Source: Gigantopelta aegis (Eukaryota > Mollusca > Gastropoda > Neomphalida > Peltospiridae). Taken from it: DNA of 64,000 nt. The stretch is taken from assembly GCF_016097555.1 (NCBI RefSeq), contig NC_054699.1, positions 9,336,316 through 9,400,315 on the forward strand, in the 5' to 3' direction. The position numbers and the translations under genes are program-made. Below, piece by piece: positions 22,116 through 63,902 of this stretch (its first letter is position 1; each line of letters opens with the position of its first letter). Under the pieces are notes generated by a model, which was not told the origin of the DNA, did no database searches, and saw nothing but the letters and a program-made list of their open reading frames with translations.

Positions 22116-22289
22116 CAGGGCCGTAGCTAGCAGGGGGGCAAGGGGGGCAGTTGCCCCCTACCGAAAAAATTCGGAAAGCATTATAGAAACTTAAAGAAAA
22201 CTTTCTTCTTAACCGTTTAAGGAGTTTTAGACTATTAACTACTCATTTGCCCCCCCCCCCCCCAACAAAAAATCCTAGCTACGGCCCTG
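22116..22289. mobile_element. MITE with CAGGGCCGTAGCTAG termini, complete
   Basis: Perfect 15-bp inverted termini (22116-22130 and 22275-22289) flanked by the 5-bp duplication GGTAG (22111-22115 and 22290-22294). 174 bp, non-coding, with poly-G/C blocks inside. Sister of the copy at 5261. Confidence 0.9.
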
Positions 22290-35800: not shown

Positions 35801-38101
35801 TAAAATCTGTGTGGTCCGTAACCATATGTCTGACGCCATATAACCGTAAATAAAATGTGTTGAGTGCGTCGTTAAATAAAACACTACACAAAACAGCTTC
35901 ATGGTCAGGCAAGTGTGTGTCAGTGTACTCAACAACGAGAACTAGAATTGAAGACACCTGGTGCTTTAGTTTCGTTAATAAAGTTGTTTCATTTGTAAAT
36001 TTAGTTTTTTTCTTCTTCTAGAATAGCGTTGGGGCATGATCGAGTGAAGATGGAATAGCTAAATGTGAATTTCGCTATTCCGTGCTTTATTGCACCTTTC
36101 ATTGCGCCACACTGGAAGATTTGATTTGCTATTCCGTTTTAAAACATGAGTATTTTAGGAAAAGCAGAATAAGATATATCTTGACTTCTGTCTGATATTG
36201 TGCGAATGGTCGTTTCAGTTGCCCATTACTCACACAAATCTAATAAAAAAAAAAAAATCCTCTTGATTAAAACAGCATTAAATCAATCGATAAATTATTA
36301 TTTTGTCCGTATACTGTAATTTTTAATTACGACACATTTATCATGTTTACATTATATTACTATAAAATCCCACAGCACTAGGACCTCCACGAGTACTCGT
36401 GCATGGGTCGAGTCTAGCAAGACTAGAGTCCGTTCACAGGACTCTGGTACCCGTGCAAGGAATAGGATAGGATAACATTTTAACGTACCTATATCCAATT
36501 AAGGAAGAGCATTCTCATTTAATCATAATTCATACGTCATTTTGCCATATGCTTGCAGCCGGTTACATTAGAGGGCTATGAGAACGTCTGGAATGCAATA
36601 CAATGGCATGATTTGCCATCCATGTTGAGTGCTGGAATTAAGATGCATAATACTATGTTATTTTATTCCTCAGTCTCATTATCGTCTACCGGGTCCGGGT
36701 TGGGTTTTACCCTCGAGTACTCGAGTCTAATATTTTGGACTCATAGACGCCCTACACAGCACACACTGATATTTGATTATGACTTTCTTACCTCCTGGTA
36801 ACCTGAACGACCGTTCTCGACTTACTTGACATGTGGTAACCTCCTGGTAACCTGAACGACCGTTCTTGTCTTTCTTGACATGTGGTATCCTGGTAACCTG
36901 AACGACCATTCTCGACTTTCTTAACATGTGTAACCTCCTGGTAACCTAACCTAAAAGACTATTCTCGACTTTCTTGACATGTGGTAACCTCCTGGTAACC
37001 TGAACAACCGGTCTCGACTTTCTTGACATGTGGTATCCTGGTAACCTGAAAGACCATTCTCGACTTTCTTAACATGTGTAACCTCCTGGTAACCTAACCT
37101 AAAAGACTATTCTCGACTTTCTTGACATGTGGTAACCTCCTGGTAACCTGAACAACCGTTCTCGACTTTCTTGACATATGGTAACCTGGTAACCTGAACG
37201 ACTGTTCTCGACTTTGTTGACATGTGGTAACCTCCTGGTAACCTGAACGACAGTTCCCGACTTACTTGACATATGGTAACCTGGTAACCTGAACGACTGT
37301 TCTCAACTTTCTTGACATGTGGTAATTACCTGGTAATCTGAACGACCATTCTCAACTTTCTTGACATGTGTTAACCTCTTGATAACCTGAACGACCGTTC
37401 TCGACTTTCTTGACATATGGTAACCTCCTGGTAACCTGAACAACCGTTCTCGGCTTTCTTGACATGTGGTAACCTGGTAACCTGAACGACAGTTCCCGAC
37501 TTACTTGACATGTGGTAACCTCCTGGTAACCTGAATGACAGTTCCCGACTTACTTGACATGTGGTAACCTGGTAACCTGAACGACAGTTCCCGACTTACT
37601 TGACATGTGGTAACCTCCTGGTAACCTGAACGACCGTTCTCGACTTACTTGACATGTGGTAACCTCCTGGTAACCTGAATGACAGTTCCCGACTTACTTG
37701 ACATGTGGTAACCTGGTAACCTGAACGACAGTTCCCGACTTACTTGACATGTGGTAACCTCCTGGTAACCTGAACGACCGTTCTCGACTTACTTGACATG
37801 TGGTAACCTCCTGGTAACCTGAACAAACATTCTCGATTTATTTCGATGCCTGCATACTACATACGGAAGTTTAATGGATTGCCTGGAGCCTGAAGGAAAT
37901 TTTATTTTGTCGTTTTGTTTTCAGATAACGGTTGCAGACATGGCAGTGTTTGATGTGATGTGGAGCACCAGGAAACATTCGGTCAACAACAGTGTGTTTG
38001 ACGACGACAAGTACAAACTGCTGATGGCCAACTTCAAGAAGATCGAAACACATCCCAAGATAGCCGCCTGGATCGAGAAGAGACCCGACACTACAGTCTG
38101 A
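24215..38101 (+). CDS. Glutathione S-transferase, sigma class
   Basis: Five coding exons: 24215-24347, 27697-27789, 33281-33396, 34528-34635, 37925-38101. All junctions are GT..AG with matching phase, giving 208 residues, normal for the class. A cytosolic dimeric enzyme that conjugates glutathione to electrophiles; some sigma members act as prostaglandin D synthases or lens crystallins. The thioredoxin-fold part has [14 protein letters not shown] with the catalytic Tyr at residue 8, Trp39, the cis-Pro motif QLP at 50-52 and QS at 63-64. The helical domain runs from about residue 83, with the N-capping segment around TVADMAVFD (152-160). The first in-frame ATG is used; the open frame extends to a TTG only. 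A poly-A signal AATAAA lies at 38135-38140, just 34 bases after the stop. Introns are large (up to 5.5 kb) and full of repeats. Confidence 0.93.
25067..25470 (-). mobile_element. SINE-B with 15-bp target duplication
   Basis: Minus-strand copy in GST intron 1 with a complete head at the right end. The duplication TTAAATTTGAAATAG is at 25052-25066 and 25471-25485 and is perfect, so the insertion is recent. The body carries a small internal duplication of GAGCACTCACTCAGG (about 25335-25365). Confidence 0.92.
25545..26700. repeat. Repeat complex Y/Z in GST intron 1
   Basis: About 25735-26320 is the reverse complement of 50307-50870 (element Y: CACATACTTTGATTGCACTG, CGCAACTTTAATTCCAGTC and a hairpin end in the same order). 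The flanks 25545-25735 and 26440-26680 match 51190-51490 (repeat Z: TGTTTATGTCCCA, CATGATATGAAATGGTAG, CCAATCGATGACGTC). The arrangement suggests element Y entered a Z copy with duplication or rearrangement. Confidence 0.6.
26155..26312. repeat. Hairpin terminus of element Y
   Basis: Arms of about 65 bp (GAGATTATTACCCCCGTGTA, then TATCATATATTAGGAATAAA, mirrored after a short loop near 26225-26240). Relatives stand at 27487-27640 and 50307-50440. Confidence 0.8.
26705..26816. repeat. Foldback element with perfect 37-nt arms
   Basis: Left arm 26705-26741 and right arm 26780-26816 are perfect reverse complements (ATATCAGGTTACTACGTTTT at the outer end), around a 38-base loop. No internal frame. 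Identical arms imply youth or gene conversion. Confidence 0.9.
27487..27640. repeat. Solo hairpin related to element Y
   Basis: Same arms as 26155-26312 (GGTTATTACCCTTGTGTGTT and mirror), without the rest of element Y. About 50 bases before GST exon 2. Confidence 0.75.
27855..28008. repeat. Foldback element in GST intron 2
   Basis: Imperfect arms: GTTTTCGCTTCCTATTTA at left, TAAATAGGAAGCGAAAA at right, with GAACTTC/GAGTTC at the outer ends. Confidence 0.65.
28010..29100. other. GST intron 2 sequence, nothing firm
   Basis: AT-rich. 28600-28830 is somewhat richer in GC and has short frames on both strands that match no family I know. 28140-28470 may be a diverged repeat (ACCATGGTGCAGCACCATGC, GTGCCATGCTGCC). 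Confidence 0.35.
29105..29810. repeat. G/C-tract repeats, decayed SINE-A and TA microsatellite
   Basis: 29120-29260 has G and C tracts after an AGGCCCGTAGGAA motif. 29480-29560 starts with GGGCCCGTAGCCAGGGGGG. 29570-29730 keeps SINE-A wording (CATCAAAGGACGTCGTGTAT, CTATCCTG). A TA microsatellite spans about 29765-29806, followed by C-rich sequence. Confidence 0.55.
30208..30961 (-). mobile_element. 5'-truncated LINE with target-site duplication
   Basis: Minus-strand non-LTR retrotransposon 3' end. The poly-A tail is seen as a T-run at 30208-30225, followed by coding sequence for an RNase H domain. The 10-bp duplication GTCTTTAGTC lies at 30198-30207 and 30962-30971, so the insertion is a clean, 5'-truncated copy of about 754 bp. 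It lies in GST intron 2, antisense to the gene. Confidence 0.88.
30238..30961 (-). pseudogene. LINE RNase H domain and zinc-knuckle-like C terminus
   Basis: About 240 uninterrupted codons. Seen: NAETHAL (catalytic Glu), [13 protein letters not shown] (catalytic Asp), [19 protein letters not shown] (His and Asp of the last motif), then a C-terminal [20 protein letters not shown]. The first catalytic Asp and everything before it, including reverse transcriptase, were not copied. The frame opens with MRLKT, which is encoded by the flanking duplication, so this start is not genuine. Same general LINE type as the fragment at 5851, but clearly a different family. Confidence 0.85.
31108..31294 (+). 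mobile_element. SINE-A, 5'-truncated and decayed
   Basis: Begins inside the head (GGTCTGTGATGCATCCCCG), keeps the core (GTATGTGCTATCCTGTGTGG) and a shortened tail 2 (CTGATGATTAAATGGTGTCA). Confidence 0.75.
31391..32150. mobile_element. CAGGGCTYRAACTTAA-family MITE with internal minisatellite
   Basis: Ends CAGGGCTCAAACTTAACGAG (left) and TATGTTCAAGCCCTG (right) match the unexpanded sister at 32917-33240. The interior holds about six tandem units of about 65 bp (ATTGCCATAGGCAGGCTCAC, GGGATGTTTCACCCATGTTA), the fifth and sixth rearranged. Flanks AAGCT and AAGAT are a probable 5-bp duplication with one change. Confidence 0.85.
32235..32480 (+). repeat. Interspersed repeat shared with 18420-18700
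   Basis: Shares GTAGAATGCAGGAAATTGCA, GGACATCTAGATTTCAAAAT and AATGTCTACTTGG in order with the copy in CFAP300 intron 6. It ends next to a GCCAGAGCTAAC motif of the CAGGGCTAGC MITE family. Confidence 0.6.
32917..33240. mobile_element. CAGGGCTYRAACTTAA-family MITE, unexpanded
   Basis: Termini CAGGGCTTGAACTTAA and TTAAGTTCGAGCCCTG are inverted repeats, flanked by a perfect 5-bp duplication CATAA (32912-32916 and 33241-33245). Contains one unit only of the sequence tandemly repeated in 31391-32150. The right end lies 40 bases before GST exon 3. Confidence 0.88.
33637..33787. mobile_element. Short CAGGGCTTGAA-ended MITE
   Basis: Left end CAGGGCTTGAAATAATG, right end CAAATTCGAACCCTG; inverted with a few mismatches. 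The interior differs from the two larger family members. In GST intron 3. Confidence 0.55.
33800..33990 (+). repeat. Copy of CFAP300 3' flank sequence
   Basis: Ordered matches to 18985-19160 (AAGCAAAATGGCAG, ATGTGGAATCTGTGTCACTG, GGACAAAACG, AATTAAAGGTAGGAG). Too diverged to be recent. Confidence 0.5.
34025..34500 (+). mobile_element. Older SINE-A 3' half, split by a younger SINE
   Basis: 34025-34077 (TAGTCCATTGAGTGGCTGC...TTTTCTCTCTACAGTAA) continues at 34418-34500 (ATATGTCTGAAGCAATATAA, GTCGAGTGCATCATTAAATA). The two pieces form the end of one SINE, interrupted by the full copy between them. Confidence 0.8.
34078..34402 (+). mobile_element. SINE-A, full, nested in an older SINE
   Basis: Complete head (GGACGTAGCCCAGTGGTAAA), core and tail 1. 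The 15-bp duplication TTCTCTCTACAGTAA is at 34063-34077 and 34403-34417. In GST intron 3, close to exon 4. Confidence 0.92.
34711..35022 (+). mobile_element. SINE-A with tail 2
   Basis: Head GGGACTAGCACAGTGGTAAA, core, and the tail CCGATGATTAATAAATCAAT ending TTAAACAAAACAAACTTT. In GST intron 4. Confidence 0.88.
35028..35189. mobile_element. CAGGGCTAGC-family MITE, copy 3
   Basis: CAGGGCTAGCAC at left and GCCAGAGCTAGCC at right, with the same interior order as 18103 and 19165. It directly follows the SINE tail. Confidence 0.7.
35208..35455 (-). mobile_element. SINE-D
   Basis: The minus-strand head at the right end is like SINE-B (CCTCGGTGGCGTTGTGGTTA), but the body is different (AGGTGTAAGACCACTACACC, then GCTTGAACCTTAATTGGAT). 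Relatives stand at 43890-44125 and 63155-63430. Confidence 0.75.
35505..35887 (+). mobile_element. SINE-B, full, tail 1
   Basis: Complete head from GGCCTCGGTGGCGTCGTGG, B-box GGTTCGGATCCCA, body, core, and tail 1 (GTTGAGTGCGTCGTTAAATA). The SINE-B copies at 1494 and 25067 end in tail 2, so head and tail are interchangeable. Confidence 0.88.
36379..36754. mobile_element. hAT-type MITE, copy 1
   Basis: Termini TAGGACCTCCACGAGTACTCG and GACTCATAGACGCCCTA are inverted repeats; perfect 8-bp duplication CACAGCAC at 36371-36378 and 36755-36762. Non-coding; no autonomous partner in the window. In GST intron 4. Confidence 0.9.
36783..37846 (+). repeat. Minisatellite in GST intron 4, units of about 46-49 bp
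   Basis: About 22 tandem units built on CGACTTACTTGACATGTGGT and AACCTCCTGGTAACCTGAAC, with long (49-bp) and short (45-46-bp) versions lacking part of the CCTCC block. From about 37475 on, the units fall into a three-unit higher-order pattern of about 144 bp (GAATGACAG variant near 37533 and again near 37677). Ends 78 bases before exon 5 and does not copy the exon edge. Confidence 0.93.
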
Positions 38102-38215: not shown

Positions 38216-39420
38216 TTAAAGGCCCAGACCCTAGTTTCAGCCCATGAAAATGGACACTGAGTTTAGTTAATCTACACACCTGCAAATGGACACTGAGTTT
38301 AGTTAATCTACACACCTGCAAATGGACACTGAGTTTAGTTAATCTACACACCTGCAAATGGACACTGAGTTTAGTTAATCTACACACCTGCAAATGGACA
38401 TTCAATTTAGTTAATCTACACACCTGCAAATGGACACTGAGTTTAGTTAATCTACACACCTGCAAATGGACACTGAGTTTAGTTAATCTACACACCTGCA
38501 AATGGACACTGAGTTTAGTTAATCTACACACCTGCAAATGGACACTGAGTTTAGTTAATCTACACACCTGCAAATGGACACTGAGTTTAGTTAATCTACA
38601 CACCTGCAAATGGACACTAAGTTTAGTTAATCTACACACCTGCAAATGGACACTTGGGTTTAGTTAATCTACACACCTGCAAATGGACACTGAGATTAGT
38701 TAATCTACACACCAGCAAATGGACACTGAGTTTAGTTAATCTACACACCTGGAAATGGACACTTGAGTCTAGTTAATCTACACACCTGCAAATGGACACT
38801 GAGTTTAGTTAATCGACACACCTGCAAATGGACACTTGAGTTTAGTTAATCTACACATCTGCAAATGGACACCGAGTTTAGTTAATCTACACACCTGGAA
38901 ATGGACACTTGAGTCTAGTTAATCTACACACCTGCAAATGGACACTGAGTTTAGTTAATCGACACACCTGCAAATGGACACTGAGTTTAGTTAATCTACA
39001 CATCTGCAAATGGACACTGAGTTTAGTTAATCGACACACCTGCAAATGGACACTGAGTTTAGTTAATCTACACATCTGCAAATGGACACTGAGTTTAGTT
39101 AATGTACAAACCTGTAACACACATAGGGATAAAGTTATAACAGAGAGAAGCCAAAGTCTGTGATGTTTAAACGGGGAAATACCGTCTAAAAATAACTAGA
39201 GCTTGTCTCAATAACCATTATTTCTTTGATGACCGTGCGTTTTTAGAATTATGAAAAATGCTTTTTTGGGTATTACAAAAATCTGGATGACCAGAACCAC
39301 TTAACGTTATAAAAATGAAAATTTTAAATAATAAAATGTAAGTACTTCAAAGTTAAATGATCAGTGAGAAATATGTCCAAGTGTTTAAAAACTAGGGTCT
39401 GTCACTTTAATACTTTAATA
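38216..39420. mobile_element. TTAA-flanked MITE with internal 36-bp minisatellite
   Basis: Starts TTAA-AGGCCCAGACCCTAG and ends CTAGGGTCTGTCACT-TTAA, the same family as 16169-16570. Inside, 38247-39115 is about 24 tandem units of about 36 bp (GGACACTGAGTTTAGTTAAT, CTACACACCTGCAAAT). Outside the array the interior matches the sister copy (GGATGACCAGAA, AATAATAAAATGTAAGTA). It starts 115 bases after the GST stop and 76 bases after its poly-A signal. Confidence 0.92.
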
Positions 39421-47989: not shown

Positions 47990-50900
47990 TCACTCTAGCT
48001 CAATGATCAAGTCTTCTTCATTCACTGTGTCACCGGTCTTGAAATTCACTTTTTTAACCTGAAAAAAATATTTGAAAAATCAGATAAACCTGTTTGAACA
48101 AACACTGTTTAAAGGTGATAACATACAATACGAGTGCGTCGTACGAGAATAGCTCATTGTGACATGACAACATTACAATTTAATCAGTTGCTATGCTATC
48201 GGTTATTCTCGTATGAGACACTTGTACCGTGTGGTGTCGTCTTAAAGTTACATTCTCTAGTTACCATATTATAACATCATGTACAAATATGAAATACAAG
48301 CTCAAATGCACTTTTAAAAAACTCGTGTGTGTTCGCTATGAACGGAGATCGTCAAAAGTATACGCTCAATTCGTCGCCTGTGCTGCCATAGCTCGGCAAA
48401 GTACAAACGACAGCCTGTTGTCAGTTTCAGTTAACACGTGCTTTTTGCCGATTTCAAATTGTAGGGTTCGTCTCAAAAAATTAAAAGAGAAATCTTGCAC
48501 TGTACGAAGAATGTTCGGTTGAGGATATGGTACTAGAGTCTTTTGTTAAAACCGGTTTGATCTTGAAAACGAATTATCAACAATCGTACCTTCCTATTTC
48601 AGAATTAGTATTTTATAAAGTGTTAGTAGAACTTTTAAAGTTTAGTTTGTATACTAGTAACACATTAATCATTTTTATTTTTTAATAAAATATACTAAAG
48701 TAGACAATGAATGTTTTCACTTCTTAATTTTACGTGTTAAAATCGACAAATTCAAATAAATATTCTTTTGTTTGGAAAGGGTAAAGTTGGAGGGGGGGTG
48801 GGGGTGTTTAACGACATCAAAGTTAGAGCATATTGATTTAATAATCATCTGACACCATACAACTGTAAATAAAATGTGTTGAGTGCGTTGTTAAATAAAA
48901 CATATTCTATCCTTCCTTCCATCTGCTGTTGGATGTCAACCATTTGGTAATTTTGACATATAATCTTAGAAAGGAATCGGGTGCATGTGCAGGGGGAGGG
49001 TATTGGAGGTCGAAACCCTTACTTGCCCAAGCTTAATTTTTTTTTGAAATGTATTTTTTGGGGGAGCATGGCCCCATATAAACTTCGCTTAACACAATCT
49101 ATAACCCCAACACCGCTGAAATCCCTGCACACGCGCCTTGGAAACCCGCTACATTTTTTTTTAGCAAGGGATTGTTTATATATACCATCCCACAGACAGG
49201 ATATCACATACCATGGTCTTTTTGTATACCCGCCGATGGAGATCGATCCTAGACTGACTGCGCTTTTCAAAAAAACACCTTTTCAGGTCTAAGTAATGAA
49301 TAAAAAAAACATATAGTCTTGAAAAATGTTACGTAAATCGAACACAGTACCCTCTTCCTCTACCCGTAGAGCGTTACGTAATTAGTAACACCCCCTTACA
49401 TGTAACGCGTATGCCAACAGCTGGCCACTATCAAAATTTCAAGGCAAATCCCCCACTCACCGACCCCTGGAAAGGTGTTGTACCATACCTCTATGGATAT
49501 AAATATGTTTTGGAGATATGAGACGACCGCTCAATCAAGACAGTTAAATTTGTTCAAAAATTGCGAAATCTCACGTGATAGCTTGTTGGGGAATTCTATA
49601 CTTGTGATAAGCCAATGAAAACCGAGATCGGTACGAGCCCGTCAAAGGTGTTCCACTTTCAAAATCATGGCTTTGTTTTTGACCTGGATAAGCCAGCGTA
49701 GTGAAACCAATGCGGAGTGTGGCGTCATATATGCACCAAAGGTAATTGGATTTTCTGTTCTATATGCTTAAATCATAAAAATATTCCAGGGAATGTATTT
49801 TTCACTGTAAATTGTTTTCAAGATCTGTGATTTTAATGCCTTTTTATTAATCACAATACATTAAGAAAAGTTAGTATATTTTATAAAAAAAAATTTTTTT
49901 AAGGCATACCAAAAATATAGTCATGTAAACATTAATTAAAGGTCACTTTGTTAGAATATTAAAAACATCATGAATAAACAGGAAGTCATCATCACCGGTC
50001 ATGTTTAGCTAACGTATTCATGTGATGATGCCTGACATATAGAAATGATATAGAACTGTTGGTACACAAGAGTAAAAGGCTGTGGGGGGGGGGGGAGGTT
50101 TTTTTGGGAGAGACGACAACTGCCCCCCCCCCCCCCCCCCCCCCCCAACCCCCTGCTGGAGCAAATACTCAAATTTGATTATTTGGGCAAAAATTATGAA
50201 GATATTTGGGCAAAATGAGCTGGCTTGAAACCTTTTTACCATGTATTTCCATCATTCTGTTCACAATATAAAATTGTGTAGTTTGACAGTAATGCTAATA
50301 TGAATAAATAGAGGTTATTACCAGGGTTTTTCGTTATCGTCAGTATCATACATTAGGAATAAAAACTGTATTATTGTGAATTGTATCATAATATATGATG
50401 ATATTGACGATACTGAAACACACAAGGGTAATAATGTCTTTATCATATAATGTCAAGCTTAACACAACATGTTTTTCTGTAAACTGTATACGCAACTTTA
50501 ATTCCAGTCAGCCATTATTCGATATTCAAATGACGTAACAATATGTGACGCAGTGTCTTTTTGAATGAAAATGATGTCAAACTTGAATGACATCATTTTG
50601 GATATCCTTACATAAAAATAAACTAGTGCTTAACATTTTTTTTTCCTAAACACTGGACAGCTTTCAGTGTAAAGTTGCTATTGAAATGTTTTTGTTTGAG
50701 ATGAGTGTCACCATAGTAAGTTTGCTTAGTGTCAATAAATGTAGTGCCGTGACTTCAATTAATTTACATCTAATTTGCAAAGTTATCAAATTCTGAAAGT
50801 GTGTGATTTGAAAAACATCACATACTCTGATTACACTGGATATGCTAGCTATTATATGATCAATGTTCTTATCCAGATTCAGACATTTTCATTTAATTCG

Positions 50901-53900
50901 GGAAAAATTCAGCCTGCCTCCCTCCCCCTTACAATTGTGGTAGCTAGTATGCCTATGTGTGTGTCTAACATCTTGTCTGTTCGTTTCAGTGTGTCGGAAA
51001 TGGTAACTTACTGTGGCACTTTTCCCGGCAACCAGACTGTTTTGCATCTTCATAGCTTCGAGAACACACACCTCCTGACCCTCAGCAACCTGAACAAGAC
51101 ATGTACACATGTTATAAACAATACTCATTTTTTTATCCTATAACTTACTCACAAACATAACTTTTTTTCAAACCTATAACGTACCCATGTCATCCATGTC
51201 ATAAACCCATTTGATATTTATGGGATATTAAACGAGCTTCTATTTCGTATCATGTTTATGTCCCAAGCTTTAGCGAGTGACAATTAAAATTGTTTCACGA
51301 GTGACATATACATGATATGAAATGGTAGTGATTTTAGTATCCTATTTATTACCCATAATTGATCTTAATTTATATCACTCAACTCCTTTAGTTGATGTTC
51401 CTGTAAGGTTGTAGTGTGCCAATCGATGACGTCGAACTTGGCGTTCATTTTGATATGCACCAAGATATTTTTAACTATATGGGTAATAATTTGGTTTCTT
51501 ACAAACCCATTGGTGAGAACACTATTAATTAATTATTTATGATAACACATATTAATAATACATATATGTGTGATAACAATTTAAGGACATATGATTGGCT
51601 TCTCCTAGGTGATGACCCGATTGTGACAGCCATACTATCTAATGAAAAAAAGCAAAGATCAAAATAAGATTGATCTGTAATCTATCTCATGGTCCATTCC
51701 TTTACGTGTTGAGGTAGCTTGAATGTTTCAATGACTCGAAGAGCTATGCCAGCTGGAGCATCAGCTCCTGGTAGAGTCACCCAAGCTGGACTGGTCAAAG
51801 GGTAGAGACTAGACTAATATGGACCAGACAGAGGATGTGAGTCGAGAAAGACAACTGTCTAGGAGAAGCATACTCCAAAATCAAAACTGGGCTGGAGAGG
51901 CTCAGAATCCTAGTAAGGAAACTCCTAGGAGAAGGAAAACTCCAAACTCAAACCAAGTCCACTGAAGTCAGAGTACAGAAGCTATGCATCAGCATTAGCG
52001 TGGAAACCGAAAGGAAATGTCTGTACATGCACCAAGCTGTATGATCATGAAACAGATGGACATATCGAAGTGGTGTCGCCCCCATGGACCAAAGCCAGGT
52101 GGGTATGGTGCCGGGCCTCCAGCCTCGAAGGGGTCCACTCAAGCAACTGGTGGCTCTGTCATGAAGCCAGGATAAAGCACTGGCTGAATGGAGCAAAGCA
52201 TGATCAACTATAGCTTGAACGCAGCAGAAAGAAGATCTGTGATGTATAGTTAACCTGAAACTGATTAACAAGCGCAAGACTATAAATAAGTTTTAGTTTA
52301 ATTTTGTTTATAACCTGGTTTTTCAGGATATGTAAGAAATTGAATACTACTTTTGTGTCCCATTAGATACCATTTGTCATACAACTTATTGTTTAAAAAC
52401 GTATCCAACTTGCTTTCACTTGTTAGATACATTTTAAAACAACTTGTGAGATAAATGTTACCTATCATGTACTCATGTAGTATTCTCTATGTATTAACCT
52501 AGTTAAAACACCTTTAACTGTTGCTGGGGTACCTATTTACAACCAAGGAGCCACTTTCACAAAACATTTTACGTTTATGGTGAGCAGACATTAAGTCTAT
52601 ATGTAGAACAATACATCAATATCGAAGATGAGACACGGTAAGGACAGTAGAAAGTAACTGATGTCTATTTCGAACTATTATTTGTACTGTATGCAATGAT
52701 AACAATAGTTTAACAGCTGTAAATTCATGTTTATGTGCAAAACTAGGCTACTAAAATCCACAATTAAAAAACAGTGTGCTCAAAACACACTTTCTTTTGA
52801 TAGAGCAGTTAATACCGCAGGTCCTTTCAATGGTGATAAATGTAAGTGTGTTTGTTGTGAAAGTTTTATCTGGGTGAAAAATGTATGCAATTTTATTTCA
52901 TCCAGTACCAAAACCTTTTAAATATGTGTAGTAATGTATCCTGTGGGTGGGCACTGTAGGCCACAAGTGGGTGATGTTCAATTGGCACTATATCAGAAAA
53001 TCTTCAATTACTCAAGTAGCATATGCATTCAAAATGGCAAAATTCTGTCACAAAATGCACAATCCTGTCTTTTTTATGTCATTGATGCACAGTTGGTGTG
53101 GGATCAATCCCCGTCGGTGGGCCCATTGTGCTATTTCTCGTTCCAGCCAGTGCACCATGACTGGTATATCAAAGGCCATGGTATGTGCTATCCTGTCTGT
53201 GGGAAAGTGCACATAAAAGATCCTTTGCTGCATTAGAAAAAATGTAGCGGTTTCCTCTAATGACTACAAGTCAGAATTACCAAATGTTTGACATCCAATA
53301 GCCGATGATTAATTAATCAATGTGCTCTAGTGGTGTCAATAAACAAAACAAACTTCTTCTTTTTATGTTGTTTTCCGCCTCACTATAACCTGTGCCCCAT
53401 GACTGGTATACGAAAATCTCTAGATCATACATAAACAAAGGTAATTTTTCAGCATTTTAGATGAAATTTAATCTATTTTGTAAAGAAGAAAACAAAGCTG
53501 AAAAATTCCATCACTGTACATCGTCTCCAGGCTTGACTGTGATGGATTTCAAGATGCCGGGCATGGGAGCCAGGATCGACGAACTGACGTCCATCACCAT
53601 TTTCTCTGGCATGTACTTATAGAGCCTGGCCGCTGTTTCATCTAGAACTCGCAGTGGAAACTGAAAACAAACATACAATGTATGACTGACAGTTTATATA
53701 GAACTCGCAGTGGAAACTGAAAACAAACATACAATGTATGACTGACAGTTTATCTAGAACTCGCAGTGGAAACTGAAAACAAACATACAATGTATGACTG
53801 ACAGTTTATCTAGAACTCGCAGTGGAAACTGAAAACAAACGTACAATGTATGACTGACAGTTTATCTAGAACTCGCAGTGGAAACTGAAAACAAACGTAC

Positions 53901-56900
53901 AATGTATGACTGACAGTTTATCTAGAACTCGCAGTGGAAACTGAAAACAAACATACAATGTATGACTGACAGTTTATCTAGAACTCGCAGTGGAAACTGA
54001 AAACAAACATACAATGTATGACTGACAGTTTATCTAGAAGTGGAAACTGAAAACAAACATACAATGTATGACTGACAGTTTATCTAGAACTCGCAGTGGA
54101 AACTGAAAACAAACATACAATGTATGACTGACAGTTTATATAGAACTCGCAGTGGAAACTGAAATCAAACGTACAATGTATGACTGACAGTTTATATAGA
54201 ACTCGCAGTGGAAACTGAAAACAAACGTACAATGTATGACTGACAGTTTATATAGAACTCGCCGTGGAAACTGAAAACAAACGTACAATGTATGACTGAC
54301 AGTTTATCTAGAACTCGCCGTGGAAACTGAAATCAAACGTACAATGTATGACTGACAGTTTATCTAGAACTCGCCGTGGAAACTGAAATCAAACGTACAA
54401 TGTATGACTGAGAGTTTATATAGAACTCGCCGTGGAAACTGAAATCAAACATACAATGTATGACTGACAGTTTATATAGAACTCGCCGTGGAAACTGAAA
54501 ACAAACATACAATGTATGACTGACAGTTTATCTAGAACTCGCAGTGGAAACTGAAAACAAACGTACAATGTATGACTGACAGTTTACCTAGAACTCGCCG
54601 TGGAAACTGAAATCAAACGTACAATGTATGACTGACAGTTTACCTAGAACTCGCCGTGGAAACTGAAATCAAACGTACAATGTATGACTGACAGTTTACC
54701 TAGAACTCGCCGTGGAAACTGAAATCAAACGTACAATGTATGACTGACAGTTTACCTAGAACTCGCCGTGGAAACTGAAATCAAACGTACAATGTATGAC
54801 TGACAGTTTACCTAGAACTCGCCGTGGAAACTGAAATCAAACGTACAATGTATGACTGACAGTTTACCTAGAACTCGCCGTGAAAACTGAAATCAAACGT
54901 ACAATGTATGACTGACAGTTTATATAGAACTCGCCGTGGAAACTGAAATCAAACGTACAATGTATGACTGACAGTTTGTATAGACCTCACAGTGGAAACT
55001 GAAAACAAACATACAATGTATGACTGACAGTTTACCTAGAACTCGCAGTGGAAACTGAAAACAAACGTACATTGTATGACTGACAGTTTATCTAGAACTC
55101 ACAGTCGGAACTGAAATAAAATGTACAATGTATGACTGACAGTTTATCTGGAACTTGCAACTGGAAGTGAAATCAAATGTACAATGTATGACTGACAGTT
55201 TATCTAGAACTTGCATTGGGAAGTGAAATCAAATGTACAATGTATGACTGACAGTTTATCTAGAACTCGCAGTGGAAACTGAAATCAAATGTACAATGTA
55301 TGACTGACAGTTTATCTAAAACTTGCATTATGAAGTGAAATAAAATGTACAATGTATGACTGACAGTTTATCTAAAACTTGCATTGGGAAGTGAAATAAA
55401 ATGTACAATGTATTAGTACAGACTGACAAATCATCTAAAAAGTGAAATATAGGGGAGGGACGGGTTAGTTGAGCCACTGAGTTAGTTGATCCACCCCTTC
55501 CCATTGGTTTCTGAATAGAGACATGTGACATTTGGTACAATATTTGGAAAGGTCATGCTTCCATGATGTAATGGTCAGGCAGCAGGCACACTTATGTAAA
55601 TTTTGCCTTGAAAAAGACATTTTAACACAGGAGAAAGTACATTTCATCACTCAAGGTATATTGATTTATATGAGAAGAATCATAAATATTTTGCATGTTC
55701 CCTGACTTGTGAATAAAACATTGTTTTACTGTGTATTTCCATGAACAGTTTGGGTTAAGTTTGTGGCACCCTTTTAACAGCATGGATTAAAATATTAAAA
55801 TGGCCAGTATGGGGCAAGTTGTGCCAGTCTGATTAGGATATGTTCATCCATAGAACAACTTACCCCACTGTGTTTTCTAACCATGATCAACTTACCTATA
55901 TTGTCTTTTTTTCCAGTATGTTTTTTCCATATTCAAAATGACCGTTTTCAGTCTTACTCACAACATGTTTATCAGACATTCCTATATGCTTAATATTAGG
56001 GTCTCCACGAGTACTCGAGTACTCGAGCACAGACTGAGTCTAGCAAGACGCGAGTCCGTTCATAGGACTCGAGTACCCGTGCATGGTGGAATATAATGAT
56101 CAACTATTACTATAATACAATGGACAATGTAGGACAATAATTTTAGCAGTAAATAATAAACAATATAATTTACACAATAGTTATAAGATCATGTGCTAGT
56201 TTCTCTTTTTAAACTCGCTGTTCGTGCGTCACAACATATCAACTGGTTTCTAACTGCAATACAATGGCATGATTTGGCATCTATGTTTAGCCCTAGAATT
56301 AAGATGAATAATGCTATTTTACTTTATTCTTTAGTCTCATTATCATATAATGTATGTATTGGGTATTTTGGACTTGTGGAGGTCCTACTTAATATGTTTG
56401 GATTTTAAAATTACGATGTTTATTATGTTTGAATTTGTTTGCGTTCGAATAAAACAATCTTCATGTGTGATCTTACCAAGTGGGACTTATAGAGATACTG
56501 AATAACATGTGTCAAGATAGAATTTTCAAGTAACTTATGTTTGAGACAGGATTTGAAGTTAGTTCTTAAATGTTAATGCATTCTTATTGACTTTATTCTA
56601 CGATTTAATGTGATTGATGATATGTTATATAGTCATAAAAGTATATTATTATTTGTGAGATATGTTCTCGAGAAATCTCTCGTAGTAGGCTATTGTAGAT
56701 AGACATATTCAAAATAAACGTTTTCAGTCTTACTCACAATATGTGTATCAGAAATTCCTATATGCTTAATATGTTTGGAGTTTCAAATTACGATGTTTAT
56801 TATTTTGAATTTGTTTGCACTGGAATAAAACAATCTTCAAGTAAAGTACAGTATATTGATCAACTTGCCCCTTGACCTGGCACATCTTACCCCAGAAGGC

Positions 56901-59900
56901 GGGTTATTCGAGCCATTTTTTATAAAATGTTTGATAACCCACTATTATGCAGGGACACGACTAACTTTAAGATAACTTGACTAGAATGTATGCACAACTG
57001 TATACTGCAAACATTAGACTATAAACCATCACCTAGCATATCTTAATTCAAGCACAGGACTTGTTAGACTAAACATTGGCTAACTAACCCATTCCTCACC
57101 TACTGTAGTTGTGTTTTGCGTTAGCTAAAATTGCTAAATGATGAAGTGGCAATCACGGGGTTTTAAAACTATTGTGTTTTGTATTAGTCCAAATAAAAGC
57201 AAACACGTTGATGATGGGAAGGGAAACTTGGCTTTAAAATGTAGTTCAATGACTACTCAACACCATTCCAAATGGGAGGGGAACCATGGCTTTAAAATGT
57301 ACCGTTCAGTGACTACTCACCACCGTTCCAAATGGGAGGGGAACCTTGGCTTTAAAATGTACAGTTCAATGACTACTCAACACCGTTCCAAATGGGAGGG
57401 GAACCGTGGCTTTAAAATGTACCGTTCAATGACTACTCACCACCGTTCCAAATGGGAGGGGAAACTTGGCTTTAAAATGTACAGTTCAAAGACTACTCAC
57501 CACCGTTCCAAATGGGAGGGGAACCTTGGCTTTAAAATATACAGTTCAAAGACTACTCACCACTGTTCCAAATGGGAGGGAAACCGTGGCTTTAAAATGT
57601 ATAGTTCAAAGACTACTCACCACTGTTCCAAATGGGAGGGGAACCTTGGCTTTAAAATGTACCGTTCAATGACTACTCACCACCGTTCCAAATGGGAGGG
57701 GAAACTTGACTTTAAAATGTACAGTTCAAAGACTACTCACCACCGTTCCAAATGGGAGGGGAAACATGGCTTTAAAATGTACAGTTCAAAGACTACTCAC
57801 CACCGTTCCAAATGGGAGGGGAAACTTGGCTTTAAAATGTACAGTTCAAAGACTACTCACCACCGTTCCAAATGGGAGGGGAACCTTGGCTTTAAAATAT
57901 ACAGTTCAAAGACTACTCACCACTGTTCCAAATGGGAGGGAAACCGTGGCTTTAAAATGTATAGTTCAAAGACTACTCACCACTGTTCCAAATGGGAGGG
58001 GAACCGTGGCTTTAAAATGTACCATTCAAAGACTACTCACCACTGTTCCAAATGGGAGGGGAAACTTGGCTTTAAAATGTACAGTTCAAAGACTACTCAC
58101 CACTGTTCGAAATGGGAGGGGAACCTTGGCTTTAAAATGTACCGTTCAATGACTACTCACCACTGTTCCAAATGGGAGGAGAACCTTGGCTTTAAAATGT
58201 ACAGTTCAAAGACTACTCACCACTGTTCCAAATGGGAGGGGAACCTTGGCTTTAAAATGTACAGTTCAAAGACTACTCACCACTGTTCCAAATGGGAGGA
58301 GAACCTTGGCTTTAAAATGTACAGTTCAAAGACTACTCACCACTGTTCCAAATGGGAGGGGAACCGTGGCTTTAAAATGTACAGTTCAAAGACTACTCAC
58401 CACTGTTCCAAATGGGAGGGGAACCTTGGCTTTAAAATGTACAGTTCAAAGACTACTCACCACTGTTCCAAATGGGAGGAGAACCTTGGCTTTAAAATGT
58501 ACAGTTCAAAGACTACTCACCACTGTTCCAAATGGGAGGGGAACCTTGGCTTTAAAATGTACAGTTCAAAGACTACTCACCACTGTTCCAAATGGGAGGG
58601 GAACCTTGGCTTTAAAATGTACCGTTCAATGACTACTCACCACTGTTCCAAATGGGAGGAGAACCTTGGCTTTAAAATGTACAGTTCAAAGACTACTCAC
58701 CACTGTTCCAAATGGGAGGGGAACCTTGGCTTTAAAATGTACAGTTCAAAGACTACTCACCACTGTTCCAAATGGGAGGGGAACCTTGGCTTTAAAATGT
58801 ACAGTTCAAAGACTACTCACCACTGTTCCAAATGGGAGGAGAACCTTGGCTTTAAAATGTACAGTTCAAAGACTACTCACCACTGTTTCAAATGGGAGGG
58901 GAACCTTGGCTTTAAAATGTACAGTTCAAAGACTACTCACCACTGTTCCAAATGGGAGGGGAAACATGGCTTTAAAATGTACCGTTCAATGACTACTCAC
59001 CACTGTTCCAAATGGGAGGGGAAACTTGGCTTTAAAATGTACCGTTCAAAGACTACTCACCACTGTTCCAAATGGGAGGGGAACCTTGGCTTTAAAATGT
59101 ACAGTTCAAAGACTACTCACCACTGTTCCAAATGGGAGGAGAACCTTGGCTTTAAAATGTACAGTTCAAAGACTACTCACCACTGTTCCAAATGGGAGGG
59201 GAACCTTGGCTTTAAAATGTACAGTTCAAAGACTACTCACCACTGTTCCAAATGGGAGGAGAACCTTGGCTTTAAAATGTACAGTTCAAAGACTACTCAC
59301 CACTGTTTCAAATGGGAGGCGAACCTTGGCTTTAAAATGTACAGTTCAAAGACTACTCACCACTGTTCCAAATGGGAGGGGAAACATGGCTTTAAAATGT
59401 ACCGTTCAATGACTACTCACCACTGTTCCAAATGGGAGGGGAAACATGGCTTTAAAATGTACAGTTCAAAGACTACTCACCACTTCCAAATGGGAGGGGA
59501 ACCTTGGCTTTAAAATGTACAGTTCAAAGACTACTCACCACTGTTCCAAATGGGAGGAGAACCTTGGCTTTAAAATGTACAGTTCAAAGACTACTCACCA
59601 CTGTTCCAAATGGGAGGAGAACCTTGGCTTTAAAATGTACAGTTCAAAGACTACTCACCACTGTTTCAAATGGGAGGGGAACCTTGGCTTTAAAATGTAC
59701 AGTTCAAAGACTACTCACCACTGTTCCAAATGGGAGGAGAACCTTGGCTTTAAAATGTACAGTTCAAAGACTACTCACCACTGTTTCAAATGGGAGGGGA
59801 ACCTTGGCTTTAAAATGTACAGTTCAAAGACTACTCACCACTGTTCCAAATGGGAGGGGAAACATGGCTTTAAAATGTAGTTCAAAAGACTACTCACCAC

Positions 59901-62900
59901 TGTTCCAAATGGGAGGGGAAACTTGGCTTTAAAATGTACCGTTCAAAGACTACTCACCACTGTTCCAAACAGTCTTAGGTGGTACTGGCCTCCTCCAAGT
60001 CTCACTGTCAACTGCAAAATAACATTAAACATTATAAATAAAATTAAAACAAATACATATAAATAAGATTAAAACAATTTTAACTGAGCAGTAGCACATT
60101 TGGTTATGTAAGGCTGGTAAGAACCTAGGGTTGATAGCTTTAAAGACCAAACAAATTCAAAGACTTTCAAAGATTTTTACACAGCGGTCAAGGACAATAG
60201 AATGCGATAAAAATACCAAATCAGTTCGTGTACGTTGCTATCCATGGCAAAAAAGTTACCTTTTTTACATGTATCATGACAGATTAAACCTTGTAACTGG
60301 AAAATCTCAAATGCATGGAGCTGTAAAATATATCATCATTGCTTTGGCTATGATTTGTGAGAATTTAAAGACTTTTAAATACTTTTATTACAATTCAACG
60401 ACTTTCAATGAGTTTAAAGACTGCTATGAACCCTAAGAACCAATTTCCAGGGCCCATATTTTCACAGCTATCTTACAGCTATGATAGCTTCGAAAATCTG
60501 TAGTCGGGGCATAATATTTCAAGTGAATCTTTGTTCTGTTCACATGTCGGTTTTGCAACTTTAAAAAAAAAAAAACTGCAAAACTGTTACATTCTAAAAT
60601 TAAAATTTGCTAATAGCCGAGTTTTAAACAGATCTTTGAAGAGTCTGTTAATTTAGTCTTAAAATACATATAGAACATCAGTGTATTACAGAACCACTGT
60701 TCAAGTGTTTTAAACAGGTGTTTGAAGAGTCTGTTAATGTAGTCTTAAAATACATATAGAACATCAGTGTATTACAGAACCACTGTTCAAGTGTTTTAAA
60801 CAGGTGTTTGAAGAGTCTGTTAATTTAGTCTTAAAATACATATAGAACATCAGTGTATTACAGAACCACTGTTCAAGTGTTTTAAACAGGTGTTTGAAGA
60901 GTCTGTTAATGTAGTCTTAAAATACATATAGAACATCAGTGTATTACAGAACCACTGTTCAAGTGTTTTAAACAGGTGTTTGAAGAGTCTGTTAATGTAG
61001 TCTTAAAATACATATAGAACATCAGTGTATTACAGAACCACTGTTCAAGTGTTTTAAACAGGTGTTTGAAGAGTCTGTTAATTTAGTCTTAAAATACATA
61101 TAGAACATCAGTATATTACAGAACCACTGTTCAAGTGTTTTAAACAGGTCTTTGAAGAGTGTTAATTTAGTAATTTTTTACACTGACCCCCCCCCCCCCC
61201 CCCCCCCCATATACATACATACATAGATGCTACCACTCCCAAAATCCTAGATCTGCTGCTAAAGTTGAATTGGTTTATACATCATACCAACTTTTTTATA
61301 CCATAAATTGAGGAGCAAACCCACCCACTGAGTTGACTAATACTCAACGATATACAATACCTTCTGTATGACATACCTGTAATATCCGTTCCTGGCCATT
61401 CACCAGTGTATGCATGATGGGCAATACAAAACTTATATTACCAGTCACTGTCATAGTGTCTCCCTCCACATCAACCTGTTAAATACAAAACATATTACCA
61501 GTCACTGTCATATTGCCTCCCTCCACATCAACCTGTTAAATACAAAATATATTACCAGTCACTGTCATATTGCTTCCCTCCACATCAACCTGTTAAATAC
61601 AAAATATATTACCAGTCACTGTCATATTGCCTCCCTCCACGTCAACCTGTTAAATACAAAACATATATTACCACTCACTGTCATAATGTCTCCCTCGACA
61701 TCGACCTGTTAAATACGAAACAAATATTACTAGTCACTGTCATAGTGTCTCCCTCCACATCGACCTGTTAAATACAAAACATATATTACCAGTCACTGTC
61801 ATAGTGTCTCCCTCCGCATCAACCTGTTAAATACAAAACATATATTACCAGTCAGTCATAGTGTCTCCCTCCACATCAACCTGTTAAATACAAAACATAT
61901 ATTACCAGTCACTGTCATAGTGCCTCCCTCCACATCAACCTGTTAAATACAAAACACATATTACTAGTCACTGTTATAGTGCCTCCCTCCACATCAACCT
62001 GTTAAATACAAAACATATATTACTAGTCACTGTTATAGTGCCTCCCTCCACATCAACCTGTTAAATACAAAACATATATTACTAGTCACTGTTATAGTGC
62101 CTCCCTCCACATCAACCTGTTAAATACAAAACATATATTACCAGTCACTGTCATAGTGTCTCCCTCCACATCAACCTGTTAAATACAAAACATATATTAC
62201 CAGTCACTGTCATAGTGTCTCCCTCGACATCAACCTGTTAAATACAAAACAAATATTACCAGTCACTGTCATAATGTCTCCCTCCACATCAACCTGTTAA
62301 ATACAAAACATATATTACCAGTCACTGTCATAGTGTCTCCCTCCACATCAACCTGTTAAATACAAAATATATATTACCAGTCACTGTCATAATGTCTCCC
62401 TCGACATCAACCTGTTAAATACAAAACAAAACAAAAGACAATTTTTTTTTTTTGATCAAGTATATCAGTAGAATCTCATTGGGTCGAACTTGGAAGGGTC
62501 GAATACACCATGATGCTCAAACCAAAAACGAAGTCCCGAATTACACTTACACGTTGTTGACTGAATGGTTAGGTTGAATTGCCCAATGAGTTGCAACATT
62601 TTTTCCAAGCACCAACGGGGTTCAAGCCAACGTGATTCAACTGTATTTGAAAAAGGACCATAAAAACAATTATTATATTAGTTGTTAAAGACATCTCACG
62701 TACCTCGTAACTATTTTCAAATTTTCTGACAACTGCTGGAATCTGTTTGTTCAGCACCTGCACACTGACTGGCCACTCTGATCGAGTGTCAGGATGACTG
62801 GGTAATCTGCGTTTTAAAAAAACAAGAGACATAATATTTAGGACACAAATTCTGCAGAATGAACTGTGTCTCACCTTCTATTTGGAGAATAAAGAAATAA

Positions 62901-63902
62901 TCTGCAGTAATGTTGTTAAGAATAGAAATAGCAGGTGAACATGAAAATATATTATACATGTCATGTGACCAAAACAGGAATGACACAATTTCATCGGTTT
63001 ATCTTAAATATTAACACCATATATTAAAATTGCAGGCCCCAACCCTGACATTACAGATGTGTTCTGGGACAATAAATAATTAAAAAAACAACAGTGTTTG
63101 ACAGTACAGGCCTGGGGACTAATTCACAATGGTCTCTTAGACTCTTGTTATTTCTTATACTTATTTCTGTACTTATATCCAATTAAGGTTCAAGCACCTG
63201 CTGTCCTGGGCATAACACCTCAGCTATCTGGGCTGTCTTTCCAGGACAGTGGGTTAGTGGTTAGTTGTTAGTTTAAGTGAGAGAGAAGTAGATGTAATGG
63301 CCTTACACCTACCCATTTAGTGGCCTTACACCTACCCATTTAGTGGCCTTACACCTACCCATTGAGTTGTTAAACTTGCTCTGGGTGGAAGCCGGTACCA
63401 GAATGCGAACCCAGTACCTACAAGCCATTTGTGTCAGTATTCAGCAAAAAAAAGAAAAAAGGTTTGTTTTGTTTAACGACACCACTAGAGCACATTAATT
63501 AATTTATTAATCATCGGCTATTGGATGTAAAAAGTAATTTTGACATATAGTCTTAGAGAAGAAACTTGCTACATTTTTTCCATTAGTAGCAAGGGATCTT
63601 TTATATGCACCATCTTACAGACAGGATAGCACATACCATAACCTTTAATATACCAGTCATGATGCACTGACTGGAACGAGAAATAGTGCAATGGGCCACC
63701 GAAGGAGATCGATCCCAAACCGACTGTGCAACAAGCGAGTGTTTTACCACTGGGCTACGTCCCGCCCCCAGTATTGAGCAACTGATGACTGACACTGACC
63801 GTGTTTGATTGGTGTATGTGGAGTATCGGAGATTATCCTTGATGTACACCACGGAGGCAAGAGCTACCAGTTCCTTTTCCTCCATAGGTGATAGCTGTTT
63901 GC
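47990..63902 (-). CDS. PCCA: Propionyl-CoA carboxylase alpha chain, C-terminal part
   Basis: Seven 3' exons on the minus strand: 63800-63902, 62704-62806, 61377-61475, 59958-60011, 53520-53660, 51012-51089, 47990-48058 (stop at 47990-47992). Sites are GT..AG and phases agree, giving about 214 residues. The mitochondrial enzyme carboxylates propionyl-CoA to methylmalonyl-CoA using biotin, with PCCB as partner. This part covers the linker domain ([48 protein letters not shown]) and the biotin carrier domain ([37 protein letters not shown] with the biotinylated Lys, [15 protein letters not shown] at the C terminus). The closest family is PCCA rather than methylcrotonyl-CoA carboxylase, judged by this tail. 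The ATP-grasp and carboxylase domains lie beyond the right edge. Three introns-exon edges are extended into tandem arrays (see separate entries). Confidence 0.93.
48105..48250. repeat. Foldback element upstream of the last PCCA exon
   Basis: ATACGAGTGCGTCGTACGAGAATAGC-type left arm (as two blocks, ATACGAGTGCGTC and GTACGAGAATAGC) mirrored by GGTTATTCTCGTATGAGAC and a GTGTGGTGTCGTC end. 48250-48800 holds nothing else I recognise. Confidence 0.6.
48800..49262 (-). mobile_element. SINE-A (reverse), interrupted twice
   Basis: Reverse SINE pieces at 48807-48850 (tail 2), 48921-48975 and 49165-49260 (core and head side, CCATCCCACAGACAGGATAT). A forward tail-1 fragment (48847-48915) and a G-rich repeat (48980-49150, GGGGGAGCATGGCCCCATAT) split it. 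Confidence 0.65.
49265..50055. other. PCCA last-intron sequence, nothing recognised
   Basis: 49320-49740 is CG-richer than its surroundings but has no open frame or repeat partner in the window. The rest is AT-rich. Confidence 0.4.
50080..50945. repeat. Repeat X copy 3, split by element Y
   Basis: G and C tracts (50084-50145) followed by repeat X to 50306; repeat X resumes at 50871 (ATCCAGATTCAGACATTTTC). Between them, 50307-50870 is element Y, about 564 bp, the reverse complement of 25735-26320. In the last PCCA introns, antisense to nothing known. Confidence 0.65.
51190..51490. repeat. Repeat Z
   Basis: TGTTTATGTCCCAAGC, CATGATATGAAATGGTAG and CCAATCGATGACGTCG match the segments flanking element Y at 25545-26680. 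Non-coding. Confidence 0.6.
51640..52290. other. GC-richer segment of unknown nature
   Basis: Stands out from the AT-rich intron and contains short frames on both strands, none like a known protein. It may be a fragment of an unrecognised repeat. 52290-52730 is AT-rich without features. Confidence 0.3.
52740..52920 (+). repeat. Repeat shared with 40500-40700
   Basis: TTTTGATAGAGCAGTTAAT, AGTTTTATCTGGGTGAAAAA and GTATGCAATTTTATTTCATC correspond block by block. Confidence 0.6.
53083..53356 (+). mobile_element. SINE-A with tail 2, 5'-truncated
   Basis: Begins in the head (GATGCACAGTTGGTGTGGGA), has the core and the tail CCGATGATTAATTAATCAAT ending AAACAAAACAAACTTC. Lies 164 bases from PCCA exon E, antisense. 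Confidence 0.88.
53661..55437 (-). repeat. 56-bp array copying the 3' splice site of PCCA exon 53520-53660
   Basis: About 31 extra tandem units adjoin the real acceptor. On the minus strand each unit has TGTATGTTTGTTTTCAG followed by the first 20 or so exon bases (TTTCCACTGCGAGTTCTAGA, coding FPLRVLD) and then TAAACTGTCAGTCATACAT. Most units keep the AG; the outermost ones (55140-55430) are diverged and several have lost it. A direct repeat TAGATGA stands in the exon (53638-53644) and at the outer end of the array (55431-55437). Confidence 0.95.
55450..56990. repeat. Repeat-rich intron block with duplicated 140-bp segment
   Basis: GTTAGTTGAGCC at left and GGGTTATTCGAGCC at right with CAACTTACC/CAACTTGCCCC wording between. 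A segment of about 140 bp (55920-55996 plus 56398-56462) is repeated at 56705-56840 (CGTTTTCAGTCTTACTCACA, TTCCTATATGCTTAATATGT). The first copy is interrupted by the hAT MITE. Confidence 0.65.
55997..56397. mobile_element. hAT-type MITE, copy 3
   Basis: TAGGGTCTCCACGAGTACTC at left and GACTTGTGGAGGTCCTA at right, with the perfect 8-bp duplication CTTAATAT at 55989-55996 and 56398-56405. The duplicated segment at 56705-56840 preserves the empty site, with a single CTTAATAT. Confidence 0.93.
57217..59957 (-). repeat. 60-bp array copying the 5' splice site of PCCA exon 59958-60011
   Basis: About 45 extra tandem units follow the real donor. On the minus strand each unit has TTTGGAACAGTG (last 12 exon bases, coding FGTV) directly followed by GTGAGTAGTCTTTGAAC, then ACATTTTAAAGCCAAGG and TTCCCCTCCCA. 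Nearly all units keep GTGAGT; only two near the outer end (about 57255 and 57375) do not. Unit length 60 = 20 codons leaves a long plus-strand frame open (57138-59513) that is not a gene. Confidence 0.96.
60100..60620. other. PCCA intron sequence, nothing recognised
   Basis: AT-rich; a short A-run near 60564. A 101-codon plus-strand frame (60131-60436) has no recognisable similarity and no codon character. Confidence 0.45.
60621..61165 (-). repeat. 86-bp minisatellite in PCCA intron
   Basis: About six units of 86 bp (TTTGAAGAGTCTGTTAATTT, AGTCTTAAAATACATATAGA, CATCAGTGTATTACAGAACC). Strongly homogeneous. It does not include an exon edge, unlike the arrays around it. A C tract follows at 61179-61208. 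Confidence 0.95.
61476..62430 (-). repeat. 59-bp array copying the 3' splice site of PCCA exon 61377-61475
   Basis: About 16 extra units upstream of the real acceptor. On the minus strand each has GTTTTGTATTTAACAG followed by about 40 exon bases (GTTGATGTGGAGGGAGACAC, then TATGACAGTGACTGGTAATA; coding [13 protein letters not shown]). The 10-base word GTTTTGTATT occurs in the intron just before AG and again inside the exon (forward 61423-61432), flanking exactly one unit. Confidence 0.96.
62465..62646. mobile_element. Tigger/pogo-like MITE
   Basis: CAGTAGAATCTCATTGGGTC and GCCAACGTGATTCAACTGTA are imperfect inverted termini of about 25 bp. Non-coding; in the PCCA intron. Confidence 0.55.
63155..63430 (-). 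mobile_element. SINE-D, copy 3, with internal triplication
   Basis: Body and head side as in 35208-35455 (ATATCCAATTAAGGTTCAAG; GCGAACCCAGTACCTACAAG). A block GGCCTTACACCTACCCATT is present three times at about 63299-63362. Confidence 0.78.
63447..63768 (-). mobile_element. SINE-A, full, reverse, next to a PCCA exon
   Basis: Head at right (reads GGGACGTAGCCCAGTGGTAA on the minus strand), core, and tail 2 at left. Flanks CAGTATTCAGCA (63435-63446) and CAGTATTGAGCA (63769-63780) match at 11 of 12. It ends about 30 bases from the exon at 63800-63902, in sense orientation to PCCA. Confidence 0.9.

What the first reader, a model, noticed from the sequence alone, without database searches (positions are those of the whole stretch)
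53661..59957. One PCCA intron starts with about 46 tandem 5' splice sites and ends with about 32 tandem 3' splice sites
Seen directly: the intron between exons 59958-60011 and 53520-53660 is bounded by two different minisatellites. The donor-side array (60-bp unit) repeats the last 12 exon bases plus GTGAGT. The acceptor-side array (56-bp unit) repeats TTTTCAG plus the first 20 or so exon bases. Both begin exactly at the real exon edge. Known: splice choice depends on competition between nearby sites. Inferred: the transcript offers very many donor-acceptor pairs. In frame, a decoy donor adds V-S-S-L then TGA, and a decoy acceptor leads to a TAG in the next unit, so only the outermost pair gives full PCCA. 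This could reduce or regulate output, form a U1-binding decoy RNA, or be tolerated through strong exon definition. I know of no description of such a double-ended arrangement.
Basis: partly seen in the sequence, partly recalled or inferred. Interest (0 to 1): 0.9.

Follow-up and report, generated by a model that had tools for sequence, protein, structure and literature searches.

The report
Splice-site minisatellites in a vent snail
In a gene of a deep-sea vent snail, one intron begins with dozens of tandem copies of its start signal and ends with dozens of copies of its end signal; sampled genes suggest that repeats at exon edges are common in this genome, a kind of structure reported before in a few lancelet genes.

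Summary
The window matches Gigantopelta aegis; the gene is PCCA, and my 667-residue exon model is 100% identical to the database protein. The intron (59957-53661, minus strand) has 46 donor units (60 bp; 44 intact, the real one included) and 32 acceptor units (56 bp; 28 with AG). Three more exon-edge arrays lie in the same gene (5 of 40 junctions in all). In myosin and CCT genes 9 of 138 scored junctions had at least two tandem copies. An array flagged in neighbouring DNA by its donor motif abuts a USP9X-like exon.

All 104 PCCA decoys with GT or AG would give a premature stop, yet decoys drift like the rest of their units (mean rank 0.50, 11 arrays). The protein implies use of the exon-proximal sites. 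Array ends cluster at exon edges (16 within -60..+20, none in 21-120, 12 in 121-320; p 4e-5; small sample).

Best reading: independent minisatellites born across splice junctions, tolerated because exon context picks the true site. Lancelet "mirages" are the same kind. New: phylum, copy number, double-ended intron, frequency estimate. Two independent arrays explain the double end. No RNA or read data were available.

The parts
59958..60011 (-). PCCA exon (54 nt, [18 protein letters not shown]) upstream of the focal intron
   Evidence: in-frame join, identical to database protein
57214..59969 (-). donor-side array, 60 bp x 46; unit carries the last exon bases plus GTGAGT; 43 decoy donors keep GT
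53635..55413 (-). acceptor-side array, 56 bp x 32; unit carries (T)TTCAG plus the first exon bases; 27 decoy acceptors keep AG
53520..53660 (-). PCCA exon downstream of the focal intron ([14 protein letters not shown]...)
61423..62428 (-). third array of the gene, acceptor side, 59 bp x 17, TTTAACAG plus about 44 exon bases; 16 decoys, all with AG
61377..61475 (-). PCCA exon whose acceptor is multiplied by the 59-bp array
60621..61171 (-). 86 bp x 6.4 array inside the intron between 61377 and 60011, about 205 bp from the nearest donor; carries no junction copy
62704..62806 (-). PCCA exon, no array at its edges
63800..63902 (-). PCCA exon, no array at its edges
51012..51089 (-). PCCA exon with the biotin-attachment motif EAMKM, no array at its edges
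47990..48058 (-). last PCCA coding exon with the stop codon

Best explanation
These are minisatellites born by tandem duplication of a segment that spans a splice junction ('mirages' in the lancelet literature). Each copy carries a short piece of exon and a whole splice site. The two arrays of the focal intron arose independently. The exon-proximal site is used because only it lies next to the full exon (exon definition); the copies are tolerated and drift like other intron DNA. Shown: the arrays, the local origin of the units, an intact gene, a stop for every PCCA decoy if used alone, divergence of decoys at the rate of their units, the same structure at other junctions. Inferred: exon definition as the selector, and rare or cheap decoy use in vivo.
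For: Units contain their own exon's sequence. 667-aa exon model identical to the database protein and all five array-bearing PCCA junctions join without a gap in an alignment with 13 relatives. All 104 decoys with GT/AG in PCCA give a premature stop when used singly. Decoys: 132 of 148 keep GT/AG, 105 of 148 score within 1 bit of the real site, 17 score above it, and divergence of the splice-site block ranks 0.50 on average in 11 arrays, so site strength alone cannot mark the true junction. Junction copies at 9 of 138 scored junctions outside PCCA. The two focal units are unrelated. In lancelets such copies are reported not to disturb splicing (PMC3087553, PMC3902484, passages).
Against: No RNA was examined; the database protein may be a prediction. 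Individual arrays depart from the mean: splice-site blocks look conserved in two of the largest (ranks 0.10 and 0.07) and fast in another (0.95). The splice-site scores use recalled, human-like weights. The clustering of array ends at junctions is not explained by random births.
Confidence: 0.74

Rival explanations
1. Regulatory array: use of decoys makes stop-containing transcripts that are degraded, or decoys bind U1/U2 factors and hold the intron back, tuning PCCA output.
For: Every PCCA decoy yields a stop (104 of 104) and most keep a full splice site. Splice-site blocks are better conserved than the rest in the 60-bp and 59-bp arrays.
Against: No net conservation of decoy sites over 11 arrays; similar arrays on unrelated genes (myosin, CCT, USP9X-like) speak for a general process.
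Confidence: 0.1
2. Assembly artefact: copy numbers, or one of the arrays, are inflated or misplaced.
For: No reads could be inspected. In lancelets one such array was reported as wrongly assembled and copy numbers differed between assemblies (PMC3087553, PMC3902484; passages).
Against: Units differ from one another in a patterned way and independent loci on several chromosome-size contigs show the same structure. Affects the numbers more than the existence.
Confidence: 0.08
3. Introns in the making: repeat copies are recruited as new exons or shift intron positions, as proposed for lancelet globins.
For: The model is proposed in PMC3087553, and tandem repeats at exon-intron boundaries are linked to new introns in human paralogs (PMC2812944) (passages).
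Against: In PCCA all five array-bearing junctions still give the protein expected from relatives, and every decoy used singly carries a stop.
Confidence: 0.05
4. A dispersed repeat inserted at the exon edges and then expanded.
For: Intronic arrays are abundant here (28 arrays cover 7.4% of 264 kb).
Against: The units contain the local exon sequence and the focal units are unrelated to each other. Genome searches with the units did not complete.
Confidence: 0.03

Closest known systems
Lancelet 'mirage' minisatellites (Adh3, TnC, globins BflGb6 and BflGb9, PGBD5)
   Same: Tandem repeats that span an exon-intron boundary and copy splice sites, on donor or acceptor side, with normal splicing reported for some (PMC3087553, PMC3902484; passages).
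   Different: Copy numbers given there are 2 to 7 in the cases whose numbers I saw (globin and PGBD5); here up to 46. Other phylum. One intron with arrays at both ends and five array-bearing junctions in one gene.
Internal tandem repeats at exon-intron boundaries of human paralogs
   Same: Minisatellite expansion at boundaries of exons (PMC2812944, passages).
   Different: Those are linked to altered exons and new introns and average 4 units; here the encoded protein is unchanged.
Splicing decoys in intron retention
   Same: Extra splice sites inside an intron that could compete with the real ones (search listing only; otherwise recalled).
   Different: Those are described as functional (recalled); here the copies show no net conservation and are tandem repeats.

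Membership tests
Lancelet-type 'mirage' minisatellite | tandem repeat whose unit spans an exon-intron boundary | tested here: met
Lancelet-type 'mirage' minisatellite | many copies carry usable-looking splice signals | tested here: met
   132 of 148 decoys in 12 arrays keep GT or AG
Lancelet-type 'mirage' minisatellite | regular splicing is not disturbed | tested here: inconclusive
   protein-level evidence only; no RNA
Lancelet-type 'mirage' minisatellite | length instability between haplotypes or in the soma | not testable with these tools
   one assembly, no reads
Regulated splicing decoy | decoy sites conserved above their surroundings | tested here: not met
   mean divergence rank 0.50 over 11 arrays, single arrays 0.07 to 0.95
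Introner-like or other dispersed element | unit sequence present at many other places of the genome | not tested
   searches not answered

The most novel reading that the evidence does not exclude
In this genome minisatellites are preferentially born at splice junctions, so that thousands of introns carry multiplied donor or acceptor sites. Array ends cluster at exon edges more than uniform births predict, which points to a duplication process tied to the junction (its sequence, chromatin or RNA processing), and to splicing that ignores tens of identical neighbouring sites.
Probability: 0.35. Interest if true: 0.78.

Novelty: new member of a known kind. Interest (0 to 1): 0.62.

Why it matters
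How the spliceosome chooses among several identical sites is usually studied with a few engineered copies (recalled). Here one genome offers many natural cases, with up to 45 further copies at either end of an intron or at both, and the drift data suggest that the copies are harmless. That makes exon definition testable from existing RNA reads. It also shows that boundary minisatellites are not confined to lancelets, and gives a first rough frequency (9 of 138 scored junctions outside PCCA).

Tried and rejected
Rejected: that the arrays are peculiar to this intron; that the two ends must be linked, since the units are unrelated and PCCA rates of 2 of 20 donors and 3 of 20 acceptors predict 0.3 double-ended introns in 20 by chance (arithmetic); that the window is lancelet.

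Against or weakening: 277 of 2000 random 30-mers from PCCA introns also have at least 5 copies, so copies at 5 of 40 junctions are not an excess in themselves; the position of array ends is the informative measure. Tandem-array coverage is lower at junctions (about 6%) than deep in introns (10 to 17%). Comparing only with 121-320 bp and leaving out PCCA weakens the clustering to p 0.013. A scan of 28 arrays in 264 kb for strong donor motifs found 3 against 0.9 expected from shuffled units: the focal array, the USP9X-like exon, and one just past the stop of a GST-like gene with no exon recognised there. The 68-bp array at L013:8834-9455 was read by eye and no exon was recognised. No match in phage records.

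Sampling slips: my list of 'first 20' uncovered myosin matches had passed over one (C8:45240176-45240352) and taken the next instead (L048, which carries a junction array). On checking I fetched the missed one: no copies at either edge; both are now counted. In strict list order, without L048, the count outside PCCA would be 8 of 136. A script returned zero decoys for the 59-bp array through my index error; the corrected run is. An earlier count gave the PCCA model as 660 aa; it is 667.

Literature: the listings of searches showed no mollusc case; one search listed 20 of 11,655 papers and is a weak test. The lancelet Adh paper of 2002 is not held (the id tried was recalled wrongly).

Full report
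What is there. The window lies at G000:C1:9336316-9400315 of a 1.149-Gb genome. The PCCA exon model (667 aa) is identical over its whole length to a database protein named propionyl-CoA carboxylase alpha chain, mitochondrial-like [Gigantopelta aegis] (730 aa), whose contig length, 47317128, equals that of C1. 167 residues translated from five exons in the window (the last one in part) match human PCCA structures at E about 4e-24. I mapped 21 coding exons, from 92076 down to 47990 in coordinates extended past the window; the first exons of the 730-aa protein were not mapped. The joined reading frame is open to its stop.

The focal intron, 59957-53661, is bounded by a 60-bp x 46 donor array and a 56-bp x 32 acceptor array. 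Of 46 donor units 44 carry GTGGTGAGT, the real one included. Of 32 acceptor units 28 carry TTTCAG; the 4 without AG are among the five furthest from the exon. Exon overlap by Tandem Repeats Finder is 12 nt (donor) and 26 nt (acceptor).

More in the same gene. A 30-mer spanning each junction (12 exon and 18 intron nt, up to 7 mismatches) was counted at 40 internal junctions. Five had copies, the real one included: acceptor 78917 (17), donor 77199 (5), acceptor 61475 (17), donor 59958 (45), acceptor 53660 (29); the other 35 had one. As a check, 277 of 2000 random 30-mers from the same introns also had at least 5 copies: intron arrays are common here, so the count alone is no excess.

Elsewhere in the genome. 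From 64 CCT matches I took 34 of the 38 that had no internal stop and lay on contigs C1-C14, with flanks of about 400 bp (two flanks are only about 55 and 200 bp). Of 186 possible junctions 8 were dropped for want of an acceptable splice site near the match end; the 7 of these that could be probed had a single copy, though an array ends close to one of them (L038). At least two copies: PCCA 5 of 40, myosin 4 of 35 and 2 of 39, CCT 3 of 64; in all 14 of 178, without PCCA 9 of 138. The rate is rough: some match ends are domain ends rather than exon edges, short flanks miss long arrays, one junction (L023 near 3768) is ambiguous, one (L027) has two copies only, and three gene families are not a random sample.

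A further case came from 264 kb around PCCA: among 28 arrays scanned for strong donor motifs, the 76-bp x 5.1 array at L009:8712-9096 abuts an exon that matches USP9X (FAF-X) at E 4e-18 and repeats its last 23 or so bases plus the donor. Of the two other arrays so flagged, one is the focal array and one has no recognised exon.

Array ends cluster at exon edges. Among arrays of 20-250 bp with at least 2.5 copies near the 176 junctions, the exon-side end lay within -60..+20 in 16 cases, within 21-120 in none, and within 121-320 in 12 (binomial p 3.7e-5 against uniform). Without PCCA it is 11 versus 9 (p 0.001); without the focal intron 14 versus 12 (p 2.7e-4). With only 121-320 as the comparison, p is 0.0016, or 0.013 without PCCA. 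Of the 16, ten overlap the exon and carry junction copies; six stop 2 to 11 bp inside the intron, and of these only acceptor 78917 shows junction copies. One array appears from both sides of an intron; dropping that row changes little. In PCCA alone, 5 crossing arrays of 9 compare with 1.3 expected from random unit placement (P 0.0025, intron lengths entered by hand). Numbers are small and junctions of one gene are not independent. The gap at 21-120 bp may partly reflect selection on branch points and tracts; this was not tested.

Decoys look neutral on average. In 12 arrays 132 of 148 decoys keep GT or AG, 105 score within 1 bit of the real site and 17 above it (recalled human-like weights; for L023 five of six decoys count as lost, probably through a one-base offset). 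Divergence of the splice-site block ranks 0.50 on average among windows of the same unit (11 arrays; 0.07 to 0.95). So decoys are neither clearly purged nor clearly kept, although the 60-bp and 59-bp arrays taken alone look conserved there. In PCCA all 104 decoys with GT or AG would give a premature stop if used singly (15, 16, 27, 3 and 43). Together these suggest that decoys are seldom used or that their use costs little. In an alignment of the database protein with 13 relatives, all five array-bearing junctions join without a gap, for example [11 protein letters not shown] at the focal intron.

How it most likely works. A segment across the junction is duplicated and expands into the intron. 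The original site stays beside the whole exon and remains the one used. Classical work on duplicated splice sites (recalled, not looked up) found that exon context and proximity decide between copies; a unit with only a few dozen exon bases would lose to the full exon. This step is inference.

Comparison. Lancelet 'mirages' are the same kind of structure (PMC3087553, PMC3902484; passages). The Adh paper cited there for the term is not held. The listings of searches showed no mollusc case. New here are the phylum, the scale, the double-ended intron, the rough frequency and the clustering of array ends. As the two focal units are unrelated, the double end is best read as two independent arrays.

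Noticed in passing
L009:8712-9096 (C1, about 79 kb beyond the window): 76 bp x 5.1 donor array on the exon of a USP9X-like gene that holds the Cys-box motif GLKNAGATCYMNS (motif name recalled).
   Followed up: partly
window-extended 79637-79864 (L003:5637-5864): A second array (36 bp x 6.3) further up the same intron as the 78917 acceptor array, with a similar unit (TTTCAAGAAATGT), as if one junction array had split into two.
   Followed up: no
L026:1-503, L077, L055, L043, L024: Arrays that stop 2 to 9 bp short of a junction without copying the splice site itself; why they end there is unexplained.
   Followed up: no
36790-37840 and 38248-39114: Two large arrays (49 bp x 21.6; 36 bp x 24) on either side of the last exon of a GST-like gene on the plus strand; the first ends some tens of bases before the exon and shows no junction copy by eye.
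   Followed up: no
9994-11139: Long open frame (381 aa) that resembles a Tc1/mariner-type transposase by eye (not searched).
   Followed up: no
30238-30975: Open frame of 245 aa that resembles an RNase H domain of a retrotransposon by eye (not searched).
   Followed up: no
63440-63770: tRNA-derived SINE-like sequence of a type I recall from molluscs, inside a PCCA intron (recalled, not searched).
   Followed up: no
about 21880-22150: A masked or unknown stretch (N) in the window.
   Followed up: no
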